A stretch of DNA of 64,000 nt from Herpetosiphon giganteus (lineage in GTDB: Bacteria; Chloroflexota; Chloroflexia; Chloroflexales; Herpetosiphonaceae): contig NZ_JAFBCZ010000007.1 of NCBI RefSeq assembly GCF_016907925.1, positions 124,001-188,000 on the forward strand, in the 5' to 3' direction. This document shows, piece by piece, positions 20,708 through 42,201 of the stretch. The notes under the pieces are model-generated. The model saw only the letters and a program-made list of their open reading frames with translations. It had not been told where the DNA came from and searched no databases. The first letter of the stretch is position 1. Each line of letters opens with the position of its first letter. The position numbers and the translations under genes were made by a program.

Positions 20708-21952
20708 ATGCCTGAACGTATTCTCGTTGCTGACGATAATGAAGCGCTAAGCCAATTGCTCGAACTTATTTTAGTTGAGCATGGCTATGAGGTTACTCTG
20801 GCCAACGATGGCAGCGACCTGTTAGCCAAGGCCCAACTGCATATTCCCGATTTGATGATCGTTGATATTTTGATGCCCCGGATCGATGGTTACGAGGCGA
20901 TTCGCCAATTGCGCAACGATACGCGGCTGGCGCATATTCCGATTATTGTTTTGACGGCGCGCACGGCAATTGAAGATGTGGTGACGGGCTTTGAATTGGG
21001 CGCTGATGATTATATCGTCAAGCCGTTTCAAATGCCCGAATTGCTGGCGCGGGTGCGTGCCCAATTGCTGCGGGCGACGCGGCGGCCAGTGCTCAATCCA
21101 CTAACCGGCTTGCCTGGCAATATTTTAATCGAAGAAGAAGTGAACCATCGTTTGCGCCAAGGCCAAGCTTTTGCCCTGTTGTACCTTGATTTGGATAATT
21201 TCAAGGCCTATAACGATAGCTATGGCTTTGCCCGTGGCGATTTGGTGATTAAACTGCTGGCCACCATTTTGAGCGAAATCAAAGCCGAGCACAACGACGA
21301 GGGCTTGTTTATTGGCCATATTGGTGGCGATGATTTTGCAATTATTACGCTTGCAGATCAGGTTAATGCCCTCTGCGAAGATGTAATTCGGCGCTTTGAT
21401 CAACGGATTTTGACGTTGTACGACCCAAGTAACAGCAATAAACCGGTGCCAATCCAGACTCTTTCGGTTGGAGTGGTTTTGCATCGGGGCGATGTGCCAC
21501 AAAGCTATCACGATCTCAGCCGGATTGCTGCCGAAATGAAACGGGTCGCCAAACAACAAACCGGCAGCGTGTATGTGGTTGATCGGCGCTCAAACGCACA
21601 GAGCATTGAGCAAGATCAAGATCGGCGCAAACGTGGCCCAACCATTGGCTTGCTGGCCCAAGATGCGAGCTTGGTTGATATGCTGAGCGATCTGCTTCAG
21701 CAACAATCGTTATTTGTGGTTACCGCTGAAAGCGAGTTTATGCCAGATGCAATCGTGCTTGGCTATCGCGATCGCTTGCCGAAAGTCCCTAAACATTGGC
21801 AAGGCTTGCCACAAATTAGCCTGAAAATTGAGCAATCACACGATGAGCAACGCTTTGCCCAGCTTCAAATTCAGACCAATTTGAAGCCGACCATTCCTAT
21901 TCACGAGTATCTTTCGTTGGCTTTGCACTTGGTGCGGCTGGAGGCTCGATGA
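20708..21952 (+). CDS. Response regulator with GGDEF domain and degenerate C-terminal receiver
   Basis: A 414-residue regulator. A receiver domain (1-120) has the acidic pair at D9-D10, phospho-acceptor D53 in IVDILMPRIDG, and the KPF lysine near 103. A diguanylate cyclase-type domain follows (about 133-290: NPLTGLPGN, YLDLDNFKAYND, and GGDDF at 206-210 in place of GGDEF). No RxxD inhibitory site precedes the motif. The C-terminal part, from about 308, begins PTIGLLAQDASLVDMLSDLL and reads like a receiver fold lacking the phospho-acceptor pattern. The stop overlaps the next start (ATGA), so it is coupled to the TPR protein. Confidence 0.85.
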   Translation: MPERILVADDNEALSQLLELILVEHGYEVTLANDGSDLLAKAQLHIPDLMIVDILMPRIDGYEAIRQLRNDTRLAHIPIIVLTARTAIEDVVTGFELGADDYIVKPFQMPELLARVRAQLLRATRRPVLNPLTGLPGNILIEEEVNHRLRQGQAFALLYLDLDNFKAYNDSYGFARGDLVIKLLATILSEIKAEHNDEGLFIGHIGGDDFAIITLADQVNALCEDVIRRFDQRILTLYDPSNSNKPVPIQTLSVGVVLHRGDVPQSYHDLSRIAAEMKRVAKQQTGSVYVVDRRSNAQSIEQDQDRRKRGPTIGLLAQDASLVDMLSDLLQQQSLFVVTAESEFMPDAIVLGYRDRLPKVPKHWQGLPQISLKIEQSHDEQRFAQLQIQTNLKPTIPIHEYLSLALHLVRLEAR

Positions 21953-24900
21953 TCGGATGGATTTTCGTTCTGTTGTTATGCGGGCTTTTTGCCTATAACC
22001 TCTATCGAACTGGCCATGTGCAACGCTTGATTGCAATTCGTCAACGCCGCCAAACGCCGCGGCCTAGTGGTGCTATGGCTCCAACGCTACGTGCCCGCGA
22101 TTTGCGTACCCAACGTTCGTGGGCGGTGCGTGTTCGCGATGAAGTCCAATCTCGTGGTCGTATGGGCGTTGTTATTTTCTTCCTGATTATCTTGGTTGCT
22201 TTTTTTGGTAGCTTAAATCTGTTGGGCTTTTTTGGCAGCCAGCCAGTTGCAAGCAGTCGGGCGCGGGTGATTCTCTCGCCATTTACCAATAATGCTGGCC
22301 AGCCCGCCCAAGAAGGCTTTGCTGCCGCAACCACGATGGCTCAAGCGTGGCAGGCGCGTTCAGCCAATTTACAATTTGCTGTGCTCAAAACGCCAATTGC
22401 CGATGCCCAAAGTGCTTGGAGTTTGCCCGATCGCCCCCAATACGATGTGGTGATTTGGGGTTCAATTGTGGCTGGTGGCGATGCCAATAGCGCCAGCATC
22501 GAGCCGCAATTGCTTTGGACTCCGCGTCAACCTTTGCCCCACGATCGCGCTTTGGGCCTGCGCGAACGCCTGATTTTGCCGCTTGTCTATAGTTTGGCTG
22601 ATCAGCCGTTTAATGCCCAAGCCCTGCTTGGCGAAATTTTGGTTGTACTCGATCTCTATCAAGTTGGCGATTACGATCAAACAGTGCAAGCAATCAACAG
22701 TTTGCTTGATCGCTATGCTGTCGATGGGCCGCTGCGGCCTGATTTGCTCTTGGGTATTCGTGGCTCGATTGCTGCTTTGCAAGAGCAATGGAGCCTTGCC
22801 GAGGGCGATTTTCGCCGCGCATTGGAAACCGCCGATAAAGCAGAATACTGGAATAATCTTGGGGTGACGTTGCTTGAGCAAGGCCGTTTTTCCGAGGCCA
22901 CTCAAGCCTTTAATAATGCGCAAGATCGGCTGAAAGGCACCAATAGCGACCTTACCGCGCTGCATCTGAATCGTGGTATTTTGGCCTTGCGTGGCGTTGA
23001 TCCGGCAGTGGCGGTCGGCGAATTAGCCTTGGCAGTCAAGCTGAATCCCAACGGCATTAGTAATAAATTGGCCTTGGTTGAGGCCCAATTGCAGGCCAAT
23101 CAACTGGCCGAGGCGATCGAAACCATCAATAATCTTAATGGCTATGCCAGCGACGATCCGTTGGTGCAATTGATGACCGCGCGGGTTCAGATGGCCCAAT
23201 TGGTCAACAATGGTGATCAGCCGTTGTGGGAATTGGAAATTGTGCCGCCTTTATCGCGCGAAACCTTGACGATTGTGCGCCAACGGCTCGATGCTGCGGT
23301 CGTTACCCTTGAAACGATTTCGACTCAACAACGCCAAATTGCTGCCCGCGATGATGCCGCAGGCTTGCCTGAATCGGGGCGGGTGCATGAAGCGCATTCG
23401 CGCCAAGCCTTTGAATTGCTCAACCAAGTACGCTATTGGCAGGCAGTGGCCATGACCGAAGAAGGCATTTCGGCCTCGGTTGAGCCAAAAGGCCGTTTGC
23501 GTGGCATGTGGGATGGCATGTTTGGCGATGATCCACCACTTGAGCTTGCCCAAGCAGTGATTGATCCACTCGCTAAAACCCAAGACCAGAATTATGCAAT
23601 TTTGATTCAAGCAGGCCGCGTACACCGGATTTTGGGTGAGCCAAAAACTGCGATGGATTATTACACCCAAGCCACGACCTTGAACGCCAATCGGCCTGAG
23701 GGTTGGTATGGCTTGGCGATTACCCGTTTCAACACCGAAGGCCCAAGCCCTGAGCGCAATCAGGCGGTACGCGATTATTTGCAAAAAACCTTGGCTGCCG
23801 CGCCAAACTTCACGCCAGGCTATATTTTGGCTGCACGCTTGGAAACGCGCGATAAACAATGGGCCGCAGCTTTACCCTATCTGCAATGGATTGTTGCCAA
23901 TCGCCCAGATAATCTTGGGGCGCGGATTACGCTTGGCACAACCCAACGTGAGCTTGGGGCTTTGGCAGAGGCCGAAGTCACTTTATTGCCCTTGGCCAAT
24001 GCCAATAACAGCACGGCCTTGGTCGAATTAGGCAAGGTTTACGCCCAAGCTGGCCAAGATCAAGCTGCTGAAGATATTTTCTTGCGGGCCTTGAACGTTG
24101 ATGCTAACAATGCCAGTGCTGCCTATGAAATTGGGCGTTTGCGCCAAAATCGTGGCGATTATGCTGGAGCCGAAAAAGCCTATCAGGTTGCGACCCAAAT
24201 CAATACCGGCTATGTTGAAGCGCATTTGGCTTTGGGCCAGCTCTATGCTCGCTATCTCGACCAGCCCGATAATGCGGTCGCTGCCTATCAGCGGGCAATT
24301 GATGCTGGCGGCGAAGATCCACGCAACTTCGAGGATATGGGCCGCGAATTTATAGAGATTGGGCGGTATAGCGAGGCCGCTGATGCCTTGGAGCAATCGG
24401 TGCGCTTAAATCCGAATGTGCCCGAATCGCGCCATTATTTGGCCCAAGCCTACCTTGAGCAAGGCCGCTTTGAGGCTGCCCGCGAGCAGGAACGGGCAGC
24501 GATTGCCCGCGATGCCGACGGCGTATATATCGAGGCCCAACTTGGCATTGCCGAGAGTTTTCGCCGCGAACGCCGCTTCGACGAGGCCATTAGTGCTTAT
24601 AACGAAATTCTGGATAACGATTCGACGATTATTCCTGCCTATATTGGCTTAGGCCGCACCGCCGCCGATCGCGGCGAATGGCAAGGGGCGATTGGCTACT
24701 ACAATCAAGCCCTTGCCCGCGAGCCAAATAGCACAAATGCCCATTTTTGGCTTGGCCAAGCCTTGGTTGAGCAAGGTTTCTACGAGCGAGCGCTTGATGA
24801 ATTTAATCTTGTGCTCGCAACCGACCAGAATAATGTCGAGGCGTTGTTTGGGGCTGGGCGCGCCTATAGCAATATGGCGATTAATAATTATGCCTATGAT

Positions 24901-25434
24901 CCAGATCAAGCTGCTAAATATGATGCTGAAGCACGACGCTTGCTTGATCGGGCCTTGAGCTATCGGCCCAACGATGGTCGCGCCTTATTTGAGCGTGGCA
25001 AACTTAACGAGCGCCAAAATCAACTAGCGGCGGCGATTAGCGATTATGGGCGGGCAGCGCAAATCGATACCCAAAATAGCGAAGCGCTCTATTTGCAAGG
25101 CAAACTCTATTTGAGCCAAAACAATTTGCAAGCAGCAGAAGAGGCGCTTGATCAATCGGTGCGGCGCAATCAAAACGACCCGATGGCCTTATATTGGCTT
25201 GGTCGAACCTATCGCGCCCAAAATCGCACCAACGATGCGATTAAGGCCTTTGAACGGGCATTAGCGGTTAATGGCAATTTCCACGAAGCCCGTTATTATC
25301 AAGGCTTGACCGCCGAAGAATCCAACCAGCTTGATCTGGCGCGCGAGGCCTATAAGCTGATTAGCCAACAAGCCAGCCCCGATGATCGCTGGCGCTTGCA
25401 AGCAGAAGAACGGCTACGCGATTTGGGCCAATAG
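21949..25434 (+). CDS. Large membrane-anchored TPR protein
   Basis: A 1161-residue protein with one hydrophobic helix at 1-18, a basic cytoplasmic stretch, and a second helix at about 73-94. A region of roughly 130 residues of unknown fold follows, then TPR motifs from about 280 to the end, most clearly from 540 onward (units with the A-Y-x-x-A-x-x-x-N-P pattern, such as AISAYNEILDNDSTIIPAYIG). TPR arrays bind proteins; the partner is unknown. Tight coupling to the GGDEF regulator suggests a shared signalling function. The last codons (LRDLGQ) are duplicated 1.25 kb downstream beyond the HNH gene. Confidence 0.85.
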   Translation: MIGWIFVLLLCGLFAYNLYRTGHVQRLIAIRQRRQTPRPSGAMAPTLRARDLRTQRSWAVRVRDEVQSRGRMGVVIFFLIILVAFFGSLNLLGFFGSQPVASSRARVILSPFTNNAGQPAQEGFAAATTMAQAWQARSANLQFAVLKTPIADAQSAWSLPDRPQYDVVIWGSIVAGGDANSASIEPQLLWTPRQPLPHDRALGLRERLILPLVYSLADQPFNAQALLGEILVVLDLYQVGDYDQTVQAINSLLDRYAVDGPLRPDLLLGIRGSIAALQEQWSLAEGDFRRALETADKAEYWNNLGVTLLEQGRFSEATQAFNNAQDRLKGTNSDLTALHLNRGILALRGVDPAVAVGELALAVKLNPNGISNKLALVEAQLQANQLAEAIETINNLNGYASDDPLVQLMTARVQMAQLVNNGDQPLWELEIVPPLSRETLTIVRQRLDAAVVTLETISTQQRQIAARDDAAGLPESGRVHEAHSRQAFELLNQVRYWQAVAMTEEGISASVEPKGRLRGMWDGMFGDDPPLELAQAVIDPLAKTQDQNYAILIQAGRVHRILGEPKTAMDYYTQATTLNANRPEGWYGLAITRFNTEGPSPERNQAVRDYLQKTLAAAPNFTPGYILAARLETRDKQWAAALPYLQWIVANRPDNLGARITLGTTQRELGALAEAEVTLLPLANANNSTALVELGKVYAQAGQDQAAEDIFLRALNVDANNASAAYEIGRLRQNRGDYAGAEKAYQVATQINTGYVEAHLALGQLYARYLDQPDNAVAAYQRAIDAGGEDPRNFEDMGREFIEIGRYSEAADALEQSVRLNPNVPESRHYLAQAYLEQGRFEAAREQERAAIARDADGVYIEAQLGIAESFRRERRFDEAISAYNEILDNDSTIIPAYIGLGRTAADRGEWQGAIGYYNQALAREPNSTNAHFWLGQALVEQGFYERALDEFNLVLATDQNNVEALFGAGRAYSNMAINNYAYDPDQAAKYDAEARRLLDRALSYRPNDGRALFERGKLNERQNQLAAAISDYGRAAQIDTQNSEALYLQGKLYLSQNNLQAAEEALDQSVRRNQNDPMALYWLGRTYRAQNRTNDAIKAFERALAVNGNFHEARYYQGLTAEESNQLDLAREAYKLISQQASPDDRWRLQAEERLRDLGQ

Positions 25435-25704
25435 TTGATCCACGAAGCGCACGAAGGTCACGAAGGTTTCGTTTTTAGCCACGAAGCGCACGAATCGCAC
25501 GAAGCACGGAACCGCGGAGGACGCGAAGAGCGCGAAGGTTTAGATTTTTCGCCACGAATTGCACGAATTATCGTTATTTTCGTCACAGATGCCACAGATT
25601 TTCTTGATGGTGTTCTGCTAGCCCAACGCCTAACGCCTATAGCCTCACTTCCTTTGCGCCGCTGTGTTAAAGGATTGATTCACGAAGGACACGAAGAGCA
25701 CGAA
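25413..25704. repeat. Left flanking repeat of the HNH island
   Basis: The stretch from 25413 to 25467 (the TPR gene's 3' end plus CACGAAG words) and 25537-25567 is matched by 26668-26755 on the other side of the HNH gene. The non-coding part is built of CACGAAGNN words with a period of 9, CGCGAAG variants, GCCACAGAT words and a GCGCCGCTGTGTTAAAGG block. No gene lies in it. Confidence 0.8.
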
Positions 25705-25780
25705 TGCTCATTGGTTTAGACCCAGATTATAAAGTTATTCAGAATAGGATTAATGAGATTTTATTAATAAGGTTTTTATT

Positions 25781-26647
25781 ATGTTAATAAAAGATAAAGA
25801 AATTAGAGAAGCATTATTCCTTGATATATTTTTTGAAGATATTGTAAATTACGATTTTTTTATCACAATGATTAGGTCTGCAATCAAGGTTGATACTAGT
25901 ACAGCAAAAGTTGTTTTTCATAAATATATATTACCAAATATTCAAAATATGCTTGAAAAGAATTTTATTAGATATTTTTATAAATATAAGAAAATAAATA
26001 ATAATGACAATTGGATATTGAGGTCTATAAGAAAATATCCATTAGGTGATGAATATTATGAATCTTTATTTATATTATTTCAAAATAGATTTTCAGATTT
26101 TAATAAACAAAGTAATTTGTTTTATTTTATTGATGAAAATTATAGTTTATATGAAAACAAAGATGATAAGATGAATTTCTCTCCTATTGAGGAAATGCAA
26201 CTAAAAAATGAAGACGATTTCATACTACAAAATTATCAAATCGATCTACGCAAGAAGGCTATCAAAAATATAACTATTAGACAAGGACAGCCCGAATTTA
26301 GAAAAAAGTTAATAGAAGTATTTGATGGCAAGTGTGTTATTACGGAATGTAAATTTCTACCTATTCTTGAAGCTGCGCATATTTTACCTTACAAAGGAAT
26401 TCATACTAATATTTTATCAAATGGTTTATTGTTAAGATCAGATATACATAACCTCTTCGATCAAGGTTATATTTATATCGATTATGAGAGTTTAAAAGTC
26501 CATATTGCTATCGAACTGTATAAATCTGAGTATAACCAAATGCACCAATTTCAAGTAATTGATCCTATTAGGAATCGTGTTCGTATATCAAGAAATGCGT
26601 TGAGAATACATCAAGAATGGGCAAAAAGTATGCATAAATTTGAATAA
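25781..26647 (+). CDS. HNH endonuclease domain protein (HNH_2 type), likely acquired
   Basis: A 288-residue protein. The C-terminal third carries an HNH_2-like nuclease: QPEFRKKLIEVFDGKCVITE, then LEAAHILPYK (first conserved His), and SNGLLLRSDIHNLFDQGYI with the Asn and last His. The N-terminal 170 residues match no family I know and are rich in Phe, Tyr, Ile, Lys and Asn. Base composition is foreign: I count 12 G/C in 60 bases at 25981-26040 against 33 in 60 at 25201-25260. AT-rich DNA extends from about 25720 to 26665. HNH_2 domains occur in restriction and other defence nucleases; no methylase or partner is nearby, so the target is unknown. Confidence 0.85.
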   Translation: MLIKDKEIREALFLDIFFEDIVNYDFFITMIRSAIKVDTSTAKVVFHKYILPNIQNMLEKNFIRYFYKYKKINNNDNWILRSIRKYPLGDEYYESLFILFQNRFSDFNKQSNLFYFIDENYSLYENKDDKMNFSPIEEMQLKNEDDFILQNYQIDLRKKAIKNITIRQGQPEFRKKLIEVFDGKCVITECKFLPILEAAHILPYKGIHTNILSNGLLLRSDIHNLFDQGYIYIDYESLKVHIAIELYKSEYNQMHQFQVIDPIRNRVRISRNALRIHQEWAKSMHKFE

Positions 26648-26667
26648 ACTCTTGATTATTTTTAGAG

Positions 26668-26755
26668 CAGCGGAACTGCTACGCGATTTGGGGCAATGAT
26701 CCACGAAGCGCACGAAGGGCACGAAGGTTTAGATTTTTCGCCACGAATTGCACGA
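26668..26755. repeat. Right flanking repeat of the HNH island
   Basis: The bases CTGCTACGCGATTTGGGGCA (from 26677) repeat the end of the TPR gene. They are followed by TGATCCACGAAGCGCACGAA and then AGATTTTTCGCCACGAATTG, the same order as at 25413-25467 plus 25537-25567 but with about 70 bases missing between. It is a diverged direct copy of the left flank. Confidence 0.8.
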
Positions 26756-26765
26756 AAGGCCCTAG

Positions 26766-26960
26766 GCTATAGGCTTGCGGAAATTGCTTGGAATCCACAT
26801 GATCAAAGCCAATAGCCAATAGCCTCATTCCCTCTGCGCCTCTGCGTTAAAGCCTTTCTTCGTGTTCTTCGTGGTTAAAAACAGCTTTTTGATTTTTGCC
26901 TTCTGACTTTTGCCTTTGCCTTTTGATTTTCCCTTCATCCCTCATCCTTCATCCTTCATC
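26766..26960. repeat. Intergenic mosaic of short tandem words
   Basis: Words seen are GGCTATAGGC, CCAATAGCCAATAGCC, CTCTGCGCCTCTGCGTTAAA, CTTCGTGTTCTTCGTGG, a run of TTTTGCC/TTCTGAC-type heptamers, and CCCTCATCCTTCATCCTTCA. It holds no gene. Confidence 0.8.
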
Positions 26961-26973
26961 CTTTCCAAAACTG

Positions 26974-26982
26974 TGGTATAGT
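26974..26982 (+). promoter_or_regulatory. Extended -10 promoter before acyl-CoA dehydrogenase
   Basis: TGG followed by TATAGT (26977-26982) fits an extended -10 element; no -35 is evident because the upstream bases are repeat words. The leader is about 50 bases, and GAAGGAG precedes the ATG at 27039. Confidence 0.45.
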
Positions 26983-27038
26983 AATAACGCAGTGCGTCAT
27001 CCTCGATCCGACGCAAAATCATAGAAGGAGATCCATCA

Positions 27039-28226
27039 ATGACGATGCAAGAGCATACCAACGATCCCGCCTTGGACTTCTACCAATTTGATTTGCTGTT
27101 AACGCCTGAAGAGCGCGAAGTCCGTGATCGGGTGCGCAGCTTTATGCAGCGTGAAGTTAAGCCAATCATCAACGAATATTGGGAGAAGGGCGAATTTCCG
27201 TTCGAATTGATTCCCAAATTGGCTGAACTCAAGGTCTGTGGCGGCACGATTCAGGGCTATGGCTGCCCAGGTTTATCGAGCGTGGCAACCGGCTTGGTTG
27301 CTGCCGAAATGGCCAAGGTCGATGGCTCGGTCTGTACCTTTTTTGGCGTAACCAGTGGCTTGGCCATGTCGAGTATCTATTATTGTGGCTCGGAAGCCCA
27401 AAAAGAATATTGGTTGCCCAAATTGGCCTCGATGGAAAAAATTGGCGCATTCGCCCTCACCGAGCCAAATAACGGCTCAGATGCTTCGCATATTCAAACT
27501 ACAGCGCGGCTTGAAGGCGACCACTATGTGCTCAACGGCGAAAAACGCTGGATTGGTAATGCCTCGTTTGCCGATGTGATTATTGTTTGGGCACGCGATG
27601 AAGCAACCAACCAAGTTAGTGGCTTTTTGGTCGAAAAAGATACACCTGGTTTTGAAGCGACCGTGATGCACGGCAAAATTGCCAAGCGCGCGCTGTGGAA
27701 TGCCGAAATCAAACTCGATAATTGTCGCATTCCCGCTAGCAATCGGCTTGAAAAAGCCCGCTCCTTCAAAGATACTGCGGTTGTGTTGGCCAACACTCGC
27801 TTTGGTGTTGCCTGGGAAGGCGTTGGCCATGCCCAAGCTGCCTACGAAATGGCTTTGCGTTACAGTCAAGAACGCAAGCAATTTGGCAAGCCAATTGCTG
27901 GCTATCAACTCATTCAAGAAAAATTGGTCAAGATGTTGGCCGAAGTTGTAGCCATGGAATTGACCACCTGGCGCTTGAGCGTGCTGCGCGACCAAGGTTT
28001 GATGACCGATGGTCAATCGTCGCTGGCCAAGATGAACAATTCGGCCAAGGCCCGTCAAATTGTGGCGCTGGGCCGCGAAATCTTTGGCGGCAACGGCCTG
28101 TTGCTCGAAAACCATATTGCCCGCCATTTTGCTGATATGGAAGCGGTGTATACCTACGAGGGCAGCAACGAGATCAATACGCTCGTCGTTGGACGCGAAA
28201 TTACTGGTGTGGCCGCCTTCGTCTAA
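27039..28226 (+). CDS. Acyl-CoA dehydrogenase, glutaryl-CoA dehydrogenase-like
   Basis: A FAD enzyme that oxidises an acyl-CoA thioester at the alpha-beta bond. The 395-residue protein has FALTEPNNGSDASHIQTTA (FAD and substrate loop), RWIGNASFADVIIVWARD, the helix YSQERKQFGKPIAGYQLIQEKL, EIFGGNGLLLENHIARHFAD, and YTYEGSNEIN. In the last, the Glu after Tyr sits at the catalytic base position of the glutaryl-CoA and short-chain branch. The long N-terminal segment and the GGNGLL loop resemble glutaryl-CoA dehydrogenases most, but substrate specificity cannot be fixed from sequence. It stands alone, without an ETF or thiolase gene. Confidence 0.85.
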   Translation: MTMQEHTNDPALDFYQFDLLLTPEEREVRDRVRSFMQREVKPIINEYWEKGEFPFELIPKLAELKVCGGTIQGYGCPGLSSVATGLVAAEMAKVDGSVCTFFGVTSGLAMSSIYYCGSEAQKEYWLPKLASMEKIGAFALTEPNNGSDASHIQTTARLEGDHYVLNGEKRWIGNASFADVIIVWARDEATNQVSGFLVEKDTPGFEATVMHGKIAKRALWNAEIKLDNCRIPASNRLEKARSFKDTAVVLANTRFGVAWEGVGHAQAAYEMALRYSQERKQFGKPIAGYQLIQEKLVKMLAEVVAMELTTWRLSVLRDQGLMTDGQSSLAKMNNSAKARQIVALGREIFGGNGLLLENHIARHFADMEAVYTYEGSNEINTLVVGREITGVAAFV

Positions 28227-28358: not shown

Positions 28359-28982
28359 ATGTCGATTCAAAATGCCTACAATCAATGGGCCACGAGCTAT
28401 GATAGCGACCATAACCGAACCCGCGACCTTGATCAGCAATTGATGCGTGAGCTGTTGCAGGGCCAAGAGTATCAAGCAATTTTGGAGTTGGGCTGTGGCA
28501 CGGGCAAAAATACGCAGTTTTTTAGCACGCTTGGCGCTGAAGTAGTGGCGCTCGATTTTTCAGCAGGCATGCTTGCACAAGCCCGCAGCAAAATCAACGC
28601 AAGCCATGTGCACTTTCAGCAGGCCGATTTAACTCAAGCATGGCCAGTTGCTAGCGGCCATTTCGATTTGGTGGTGACGAATTTGGTGCTTGAGCATTTG
28701 GCCGATCTCGATCATTTTTTCGCTCAAGCCAGCCAAGCTATGAGTGTCAACGGGCAATTAGTCGTTTCTGAATTACACCCGTTTCGCCAGTATCAAGGCT
28801 CGCAAGCTCGCTTCCAAGGCCAAGAAGGTATCATTCAGGTTCCGGCTTTTACCCATCATATCAGCGATTTTTTGCTGGCGGCGGCCAAGGCTGGCTTGCA
28901 GTTGAGCCAATTGCACGAACATTGGCATACCGATGATCTGAATCAACCCCCGCGTTTGCTCACGTTGCGCTGGCACAAATAG
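28359..28982 (+). CDS. SAM-dependent class I methyltransferase
   Basis: A 207-residue methyltransferase of the UbiE/BioC-like type. Motif I is ILELGCGTGKNTQFF, motif II the acidic VVALDFSAGML, motif post-I/III HFDLVVTNLVLEHLADLDHFF, followed by VNGQLVVSELHPFRQYQG. The HPFR after the fourth strand is typical of a subgroup acting on small molecules. The substrate is unknown and no pathway neighbours help. AGGAG lies 8 bases before the ATG. Confidence 0.85.
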   Translation: MSIQNAYNQWATSYDSDHNRTRDLDQQLMRELLQGQEYQAILELGCGTGKNTQFFSTLGAEVVALDFSAGMLAQARSKINASHVHFQQADLTQAWPVASGHFDLVVTNLVLEHLADLDHFFAQASQAMSVNGQLVVSELHPFRQYQGSQARFQGQEGIIQVPAFTHHISDFLLAAAKAGLQLSQLHEHWHTDDLNQPPRLLTLRWHK

Positions 28983-41310: not shown

Positions 41311-42201
41311 ATGGAATTTAGTCAATTACGCTATTTTGAAGCGGTGGCGCGGTTGGGCAACGTGACCAAAGCTGCCCACGAACAGCATATTGCCCAGCCT
41401 TCGATGAGCAAAGCGTTGCAAGCGTTGGAGCAGGAAGTTGGGGTGCAGTTGTTTGATCGGGTTGGGCGTGGGGTTGAATTGAGCGATGCTGGCCATGTGC
41501 TACTACCCTATGCGCGGCGAATCTTGGCCGAAATTCAGGCAGCGCGCCAAGCTTTGCAAGCCCGCGCCGATCTGACGGTTGGCCATGTTTCGTTGGGCGT
41601 TACGCCAACGGTCGGCACGCGGCTAATTCCGCAGGCCTTGGCGGCTTTCAATCGGCGCTACCAAGGCATTCAACTCGAATTGCACGAGGCTGGAGCCAGC
41701 GAGTTGGTCGAATTGCTCAATGCAGGCGTGGTTGATCTGGCGATTGTTTCAGCGCTTGTGCATGGCGTAGAATCGACCACCTTGCTGAGCGAGCCGCTGG
41801 TCGTGGCAGTTAGTCAGCAGCATCGCTTTGCTCAGCGTCAGAGTGTGCTTGCTAGCGAGTTACGTGATGAAGGCTTTATCTTGTTTCCGCAGGGCTACGA
41901 ATTGCGCAATTATACCTTGCAACTCTGCGAGCAAGCTGGCTTTGCGCCGCGGATTGTGCTCGATGGCGGCGAGATGGATACGGTGGTCAGCTTGGTGGCG
42001 GCAGGCTTGGGTGTGGCGGTCGTCCCGCAATTAGCTATCGATCAACGCATCGGCTTGCATGCCTTGACGATTGCTGATGGCGGCTTGCACCGCACCTTGC
42101 GGCTGATTCGCCATAGTCAACGCCAGCCTTCGCCTGCAGCGGCGGCGCTCCATCAGGTATTGCACGAATGGGTCAGCCAGCATTATGCCCAAGAACCATA
42201 A
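41311..42201 (+). CDS. LysR-family transcriptional regulator
   Basis: A 296-residue regulator from the ATG at 41311 (AAGGAG at 41300-41305). The N-terminal winged helix MEFSQLRYFEAVARLGNVTK, with QPSMSKALQALEQEVGVQLF and SDAGHVLLPYARRIL, is classic LysR. The C-terminal effector domain starts around 92 (VSLGVTPTVGTRLIPQALAAF) and includes VSLVAAGLGVAVVPQLA. It is divergent from the FrdA-like flavoprotein gene, which is the likely target along with itself. The effector is unknown. Its last codons adjoin a dispersed repeat. Confidence 0.92.
   Translation: MEFSQLRYFEAVARLGNVTKAAHEQHIAQPSMSKALQALEQEVGVQLFDRVGRGVELSDAGHVLLPYARRILAEIQAARQALQARADLTVGHVSLGVTPTVGTRLIPQALAAFNRRYQGIQLELHEAGASELVELLNAGVVDLAIVSALVHGVESTTLLSEPLVVAVSQQHRFAQRQSVLASELRDEGFILFPQGYELRNYTLQLCEQAGFAPRIVLDGGEMDTVVSLVAAGLGVAVVPQLAIDQRIGLHALTIADGGLHRTLRLIRHSQRQPSPAAAALHQVLHEWVSQHYAQEP

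What the first reader, a model, noticed from the sequence alone, without database searches (positions are those of the whole stretch)
25413..26755. A/T-rich HNH nuclease gene bracketed by a direct duplication of the upstream gene's 3' end
The TPR gene's last codons and the following CACGAAG words (25413-25467, then 25537-25567) recur, diverged and about 70 bases shorter, at 26668-26755 right after the HNH gene. Between them lies a block of sharply different composition (12 G/C in 60 bases at 25981-26040 against 33 in 60 at 25201-25260). The layout fits insertion by recombination between repeats, or a target duplication. HNH_2 nucleases occur in defence systems; the N-terminal 170 residues are unknown. 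A repeat-guided landing site for solitary nucleases could be a recurrent pattern in this lineage.
Basis: partly seen in the sequence, partly recalled or inferred. Interest (0 to 1): 0.72.

Follow-up and report, generated by a model that had tools for sequence, protein, structure and literature searches.

The report
Nuclease gene inserted with target duplication
In two of six compared Herpetosiphon species a very A/T-rich gene for a DNA-cutting, restriction-like enzyme sits behind a conserved housekeeping gene whose tail end is repeated on the far side of the insert; this is a clean example of a known but poorly understood way in which restriction genes enter genomes, and not a new kind of landing site.

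Summary
The last ~32 bases of the TPR gene (25401-25432) recur after the HNH gene (26666-26697, 28/32). The window is from Herpetosiphon (G005 is H. llansteffanensis). Six congeneric genomes keep TPR followed by acyl-CoA dehydrogenase. Four have an empty site with one tail. Two (this genome and H. llansteffanensis) carry the HNH gene at the same site with the tail repeated behind it; in H. llansteffanensis the copy is ~50 bases with one mismatch.

The CACGAAG half of the repeat proves little: it belongs to a dispersed intergenic family with dozens of matches per genome.

The 288-aa protein has an intact HNH_2 domain (H200/N214/H223). H200 aligns with catalytic H224 of the EVE-HNH type IV restriction enzyme VcaM4I. 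Its helical, fast-diverging N-half matches nothing known. The insert has no methyltransferase, transposase, integrase, attC or terminal inverted repeats.

[quoted passage not shown] A recurrent repeat-guided landing site is not supported: none among 1,062 sampled genes or 26 gene-content differences. In passing: the closest Chloroflexota relatives of the HNH domain are integron cassettes.

The parts
21949..25434 (+). TPR-repeat gene, conserved in all six Herpetosiphon genomes; its 3' end is the duplicated target
25401..25434 (+). Left (original) copy of the TPR gene tail, inside the reading frame
25435..25700 (+). Left intergenic stretch with CACGAAG words; aligns with the empty-site spacer of G004 up to its CTCTGCGTTAAAG word, but belongs to a dispersed genus-wide repeat family
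25735..25780 (+). 5' leader of the HNH gene, alignable with H. llansteffanensis; AAGG Shine-Dalgarno-like word 8 nt before the ATG
   Evidence: Sequence
25781..26647 (+). HNH_2 nuclease gene, 288 aa, 25.3% G+C; residues 1-105 diverge fast between species, residues 106-288 conserved; HNH triad H200, N214, H223
26666..26697 (+). Right copy of the TPR tail (28/32), non-coding here
26698..27038 (+). Right intergenic stretch, continuing as the spacer of the empty sites into the acyl-CoA dehydrogenase leader
27039..28226 (+). Acyl-CoA dehydrogenase gene, conserved right neighbour in all six genomes

Best explanation
A ~0.9 kb unit holding only a solitary HNH_2 nuclease gene (restriction-like, most like type IV, modification-dependent enzymes) was inserted just behind a conserved TPR gene in the Herpetosiphon lineage that includes this genome and H. 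llansteffanensis. The insertion duplicated the target: the last ~45-50 bases of the TPR gene, possibly with up to ~200 bases of the following spacer, now lie on both sides, so the TPR gene stayed intact. This is the pattern called 'insertion with long target duplication' for restriction-modification genes. Shown: empty and filled sites, repeated tail, foreign composition, purifying selection on the gene, intact catalytic residues. Inferred: how the DNA entered (capture at a staggered break, template switching, or integration of a circle by recombination) and that the protein cuts foreign, perhaps modified, DNA after the N-terminal half binds it. It most likely happened once before the two species split, with later conversion between the repeats; two separate insertions are not excluded.
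For: Four congeners have the empty site with a single tail; two have HNH plus a repeated tail at the identical place. HNH dS between the two species is 0.38, against 0.34 (TPR) and 0.25 (acyl-CoA dehydrogenase), fitting common descent; whole-gene dN/dS is about 0.26. HNH_2 at E 1.8e-12; PADLOC HNH restriction models; C-half similarity to NF045808 PT-DNA-dependent restriction enzymes (below cut-off) and to VcaM4I, where H200 aligns with catalytic H224 (H224A is the inactive variant in PMC7897488). The insert holds no other gene and no terminal inverted repeats. Long, variable target duplications on insertion of restriction-modification genes are reported in PMC1643837 and PMC3031569.
Against: The spacer part of the duplication cannot be separated from the dispersed repeat family. 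The two junctions differ between species. In G000 both tail copies share two changes absent from G005, and in G005 the copies differ at 1 base of ~51 where 6-9 neutral changes would be expected since the split (P about 0.002-0.013); this needs gene conversion or a more recent, separate event. No N-terminal modification-sensing domain was recognised. The catalytic activity is untested.
Confidence: 0.62

Rival explanations
1. Two independent insertions of diverged HNH alleles at the same TPR-tail site, one in each species, each with its own target duplication: a site-specific process.
For: Tail copies are more alike within a genome than expected from an old duplication; duplication end points differ between the species.
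Against: HNH dS matches the species divergence; leader and gene align from end to end; gene conversion between nearby repeats explains the within-genome likeness.
Confidence: 0.2
2. Trans-mobilised site-specific integration: the tail is an attachment site in the 3' end of a gene, used by a recombinase encoded elsewhere, so that the gene end is rebuilt as at tRNA sites.
For: Identity block of 44-51 nt at a gene 3' end, gene end restored, bare cargo; tyrosine recombinases are present elsewhere in the genome.
Against: No integrase in the insert; no other element uses this tail; no circular form known.
Confidence: 0.1
3. Homologous recombination between dispersed CACGAAG-type intergenic repeats brought the gene in (repeat-guided landing).
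For: Both sides of the insert carry the words; the repeat family is abundant.
Against: Does not explain the repeated coding tail; only 1 of 26 gene-content differences is bounded by such words on both sides.
Confidence: 0.07
4. Free-standing homing nuclease that cuts the empty site and copies itself in.
For: HNH nuclease, lone gene, precise position.
Against: Closest domain matches are restriction-type HNH_2 proteins; the filled site still contains the whole tail twice, so it would not protect itself by splitting the target.
Confidence: 0.04

Closest known systems
Insertion with long (variable) target duplication of restriction-modification genes (Nobusato et al. 2000; Furuta et al. 2010; known here through PMC1643837, PMC3031569 and PMC3154945)
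   Same: Restriction-like gene, empty site in relatives, long direct duplication of the target, no transposase
   Different: A solitary nuclease without methyltransferase; in Chloroflexota; both repeats eroded; the two original papers themselves could not be read here
VcaM4I (EVE-HNH, type IV; PDB 6yex)
   Same: C-terminal HNH with aligned catalytic histidine, similar size (288 vs 309 aa), solitary
   Different: N-half is predicted helical and shows no similarity to the EVE domain
wH-HNH N6-methyladenine-dependent enzymes (224-283 aa; PMC11037411)
   Same: Size and layout: small N-terminal domain plus C-terminal HNH, solitary
   Different: A winged helix in the N-half is only a weak guess; no family match
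SBD-HNH phosphorothioate-dependent enzymes (NCBIfam NF045808)
   Same: C-half similarity (E 9e-7)
   Different: Far below the family cut-off (28 vs 180 bits); matched only over residues 148-251

Membership tests
Insertion with long target duplication | Related genomes show the empty site with a single copy of the target | tested here: met
   G001-G004
Insertion with long target duplication | Direct target repeats clearly longer than the 2-14 bp of ordinary transposons | tested here: met
   44 nt at 93% to the query in G005 (about 51 nt with one mismatch to its own left copy), 32 nt at 88% in G000; further spacer part ambiguous
Insertion with long target duplication | Insert carries restriction-modification-type genes and no transposase or integrase | tested here: inconclusive
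   Single HNH_2 ORF, no transposase/integrase; restriction activity not testable and no methyltransferase
Type IV (modification-dependent) HNH restriction endonuclease | C-terminal HNH nuclease with catalytic residues | tested here: met
   PF13391 E 1.8e-12; H200 aligned with VcaM4I H224
Type IV (modification-dependent) HNH restriction endonuclease | N-terminal modification-sensing domain (EVE/PUA, SRA, SBD, wH) | tested here: inconclusive
   No family match at E<=10; models with pLDDT 31 and 58, helical
Type IV (modification-dependent) HNH restriction endonuclease | No cognate methyltransferase beside it | tested here: met
   Neighbours are conserved housekeeping-type genes shared with HNH-less relatives; the small SAM-dependent methyltransferase-like gene at 28359 (called from its sequence) matched only a PADLOC mad2 model, over residues 17-142
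Type IV (modification-dependent) HNH restriction endonuclease | Cleaves modified DNA | not testable with these tools
   Needs an assay
Integron gene cassette | attC site beside the gene and an integron integrase in the genome | tested here: not met
   No attC-like hairpin seen on reading the flanks; no TIGR02249 match over cut-off in G000, G004 or G005
Insertion sequence / transposon | Terminal inverted repeats and transposase | tested here: not met

The most novel reading that the evidence does not exclude
The HNH protein itself helps make its own insertion: it nicks or cuts at a TPR-tail target and the gene is captured at a staggered break, so that the same site was hit twice, with separate long target duplications in two species.
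Probability: 0.07. Interest if true: 0.75.

Novelty: new member of a known kind. Interest (0 to 1): 0.36.

Why it matters
The mechanism behind insertion of restriction genes with long target duplications is still open. This locus gives an empty/filled pair in closely related, non-pathogenic, culturable bacteria, with a single-gene insert and near-perfect repeats in one species, so excision, re-insertion or repeat conversion could be looked for directly. It also adds a restriction-like nuclease with an unrecognised N-terminal half that diverges faster than its catalytic half.

Tried and rejected
Recurrent tail repeats: scan of 1,062 genes in 1.24 Mb; the other high-scoring repeats I checked were tandem paralogs. 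A first masking of common words was too harsh and hid even this locus, so it was redone. Repeat-bounded insertions between G000 C7 and G004 C23: 1 of 26. Flanking direct repeats around 38 further HNH_2 genes in Chloroflexota: only L015 (integron attC) and L042 (DUF2442-like gene tails, several copies on one contig) stood out. Full-length homologues: only H. llansteffanensis in genome contigs, none in viral contigs. N-half: no match in plasmids, Pfam or PADLOC. Structure predictions too weak to search with, so no fold search was run. Species tree from the two flanking genes: near trichotomy, support about 60, so it does not say whether G000 and G005 are sisters.

Full report
The window lies in a Herpetosiphon genome (G000:C7:124001-188000). 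The nearest genome with the gene, G005, is H. llansteffanensis CA052B. Gene order is TPR gene 21949-25434, HNH gene 25781-26647, acyl-CoA dehydrogenase 27039-28226.

The repeat is real. The TPR gene's last 32 bases before and into the stop (25401-25432) match 26666-26697 at 28/32, and the following CACGAAG stretch matches too. Searching the 63-base tail in six congeneric genomes gives one strong place each, and a second strong place only in the two genomes that carry the HNH gene, right behind that gene. In a scan of 1,062 genes, reverse-complement controls never reach a score of 18; this repeat scores 22.

The empty site exists. All six genomes keep TPR followed by acyl-CoA dehydrogenase. In G001-G004 the spacer is about 380-417 bases with one tail. 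In G000 and G005 it holds the HNH gene with the tail repeated behind it. In G005 the right copy, GGCGCTTGCAAGCAGAGGAACGCCTGCGCGATTTGGGCCAATAGTTGATC, differs from the left copy at one base. Aligned to the empty spacer of G004, the left flank of G000 runs on to the CTCTGCGTTAAAG word and the right flank starts 31 bases before the stop, which would make a duplication of about 230 bases. In G005 the corresponding span is about 170 bases.

A caution on the spacer. The CACGAAG-bearing spacer is a dispersed family: each genome returns about 40-50 matches at E<=1e-6 from only the 40 candidates scored out of several hundred. In the 1.24 Mb sample 77 of 567 intergenic stretches of 50 bases or more hold at least two CACGAAG words. 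The spacer part of the repeat is therefore weak evidence by itself; the coding tail carries the argument.

The gene is foreign but working. At 25.3% G+C it is the lowest of 1,176 ORFs sampled (mean 50.8, sd 4.0). Between the two species dS is 0.38, close to the flanking genes (0.34 and 0.25), and dN is 0.10, so the gene is under purifying selection. Residues 1-105 diverge much faster (dN 0.23) than residues 106-288 (dN 0.04). A conserved AAGG word 8 bases before the ATG supports the start.

The protein. HNH_2 (PF13391) matches at E 1.8e-12 over residues 185-234, and two PADLOC HNH models match. The only PDB relative by sequence is VcaM4I, an EVE-HNH type IV enzyme; counting along the printed alignment, H200 aligns with H224, whose H224A variant is the inactive control in PMC7897488. 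NCBIfam NF045808 (phosphorothioate-dependent restriction) matches the C-half below its cut-off. The N-half has no match in Pfam, PADLOC or plasmids. Predicted models are helical and of low confidence (pLDDT 31 and 58); residues 24-60 look like a helix-turn-helix pair, which is only a hint of a winged-helix sensor like those in PMC11037411.

Mechanism. A lone restriction-like gene, an empty site in relatives, and a target repeat of tens to a few hundred bases without transposase, integrase or terminal inverted repeats match 'insertion with long target duplication', reported for restriction-modification genes by Nobusato et al. 2000 and Furuta et al. 2010 (as cited in PMC1643837, PMC3031569, PMC3154945). 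The two original papers were not read (the second is not held), so the comparison rests on those citations and on my own knowledge. How such insertions form is not known; capture at a staggered break, template switching, or circle integration all fit.

One event or two. The dS values suggest one insertion before the species split. Against this, the tail copies within each genome are too alike: in G005 one change in about 51 bases where 6-9 would be expected (P 0.002-0.013), and in G000 two changes are shared by both copies and absent from G005. Gene conversion between the repeats is the simplest answer; separate insertions are the rival. A tree of the two flanking genes leaves G000, G005 and G004 unresolved (support about 60).

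Recurrence. The other high-scoring tail repeats that I checked in the sample are tandem paralogs. Of 26 gene-content differences between syntenic segments of G000 and G004 only this locus has CACGAAG words on both sides. The idea of a repeat-guided landing site recurrent in the lineage is not supported by this sample, which covers only part of two genomes.

Relatives. In 400 Chloroflexota genomes the nearest C-terminal relatives (44-46%) are two genes of genome G011. One is followed directly by, and both contigs carry, 132-135-base elements bounded by GCCCAAC and GTTGGGC; the one tested folds into a long hairpin. These are repeated some 30 times or more in G011, which also has an integron integrase at 461 bits. 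Relatives of this nuclease therefore appear to travel as integron cassettes, whereas the Herpetosiphon copy has no attC and its genome has no integron integrase over the cut-off.

Verdict: a genuine, well-supported insertion with target duplication of a restriction-like HNH gene; a new member of a known kind, of moderate interest.

Noticed in passing
L015:1277-1411 (G011:C16), L030:1912-2043 (G011:C111): The closest Chloroflexota relatives of the HNH domain lie in an integron cassette array: attC-like sites of 132-135 bases, about 30 or more copies in the genome, and an integron integrase (G011:C66:7589-8530, 461 bits).
   Followed up: partly
G388:C158:35204-35717 and 41620-41985: A second genus has an attC-like element next to a fragmentary HNH relative (41% identity) and an integron-integrase-like fragment about 6 kb away.
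   Followed up: no
L042:873-970 and 2430-2525: A low-G+C HNH relative (36% against 60% in its flanks) sits between two copies of the 3' end of what looks, from its sequence, like a DUF2442 gene; a further copy lies on the same contig, so decayed paralogs are the likely cause.
   Followed up: partly
window 25436-25720 and 26698-26870: Dispersed intergenic repeat family of Herpetosiphon built of CACGAAG, CACAGATT and GCCAATAGCC words in a fairly fixed order, with dozens to hundreds of places per genome; nature unknown.
   Followed up: partly
window 25781-26644, residues 105-165: Very low synonymous divergence (dS 0.07) in the middle of the HNH gene against 0.61 in residues 1-105: a mosaic that suggests recombination within the gene.
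   Followed up: no
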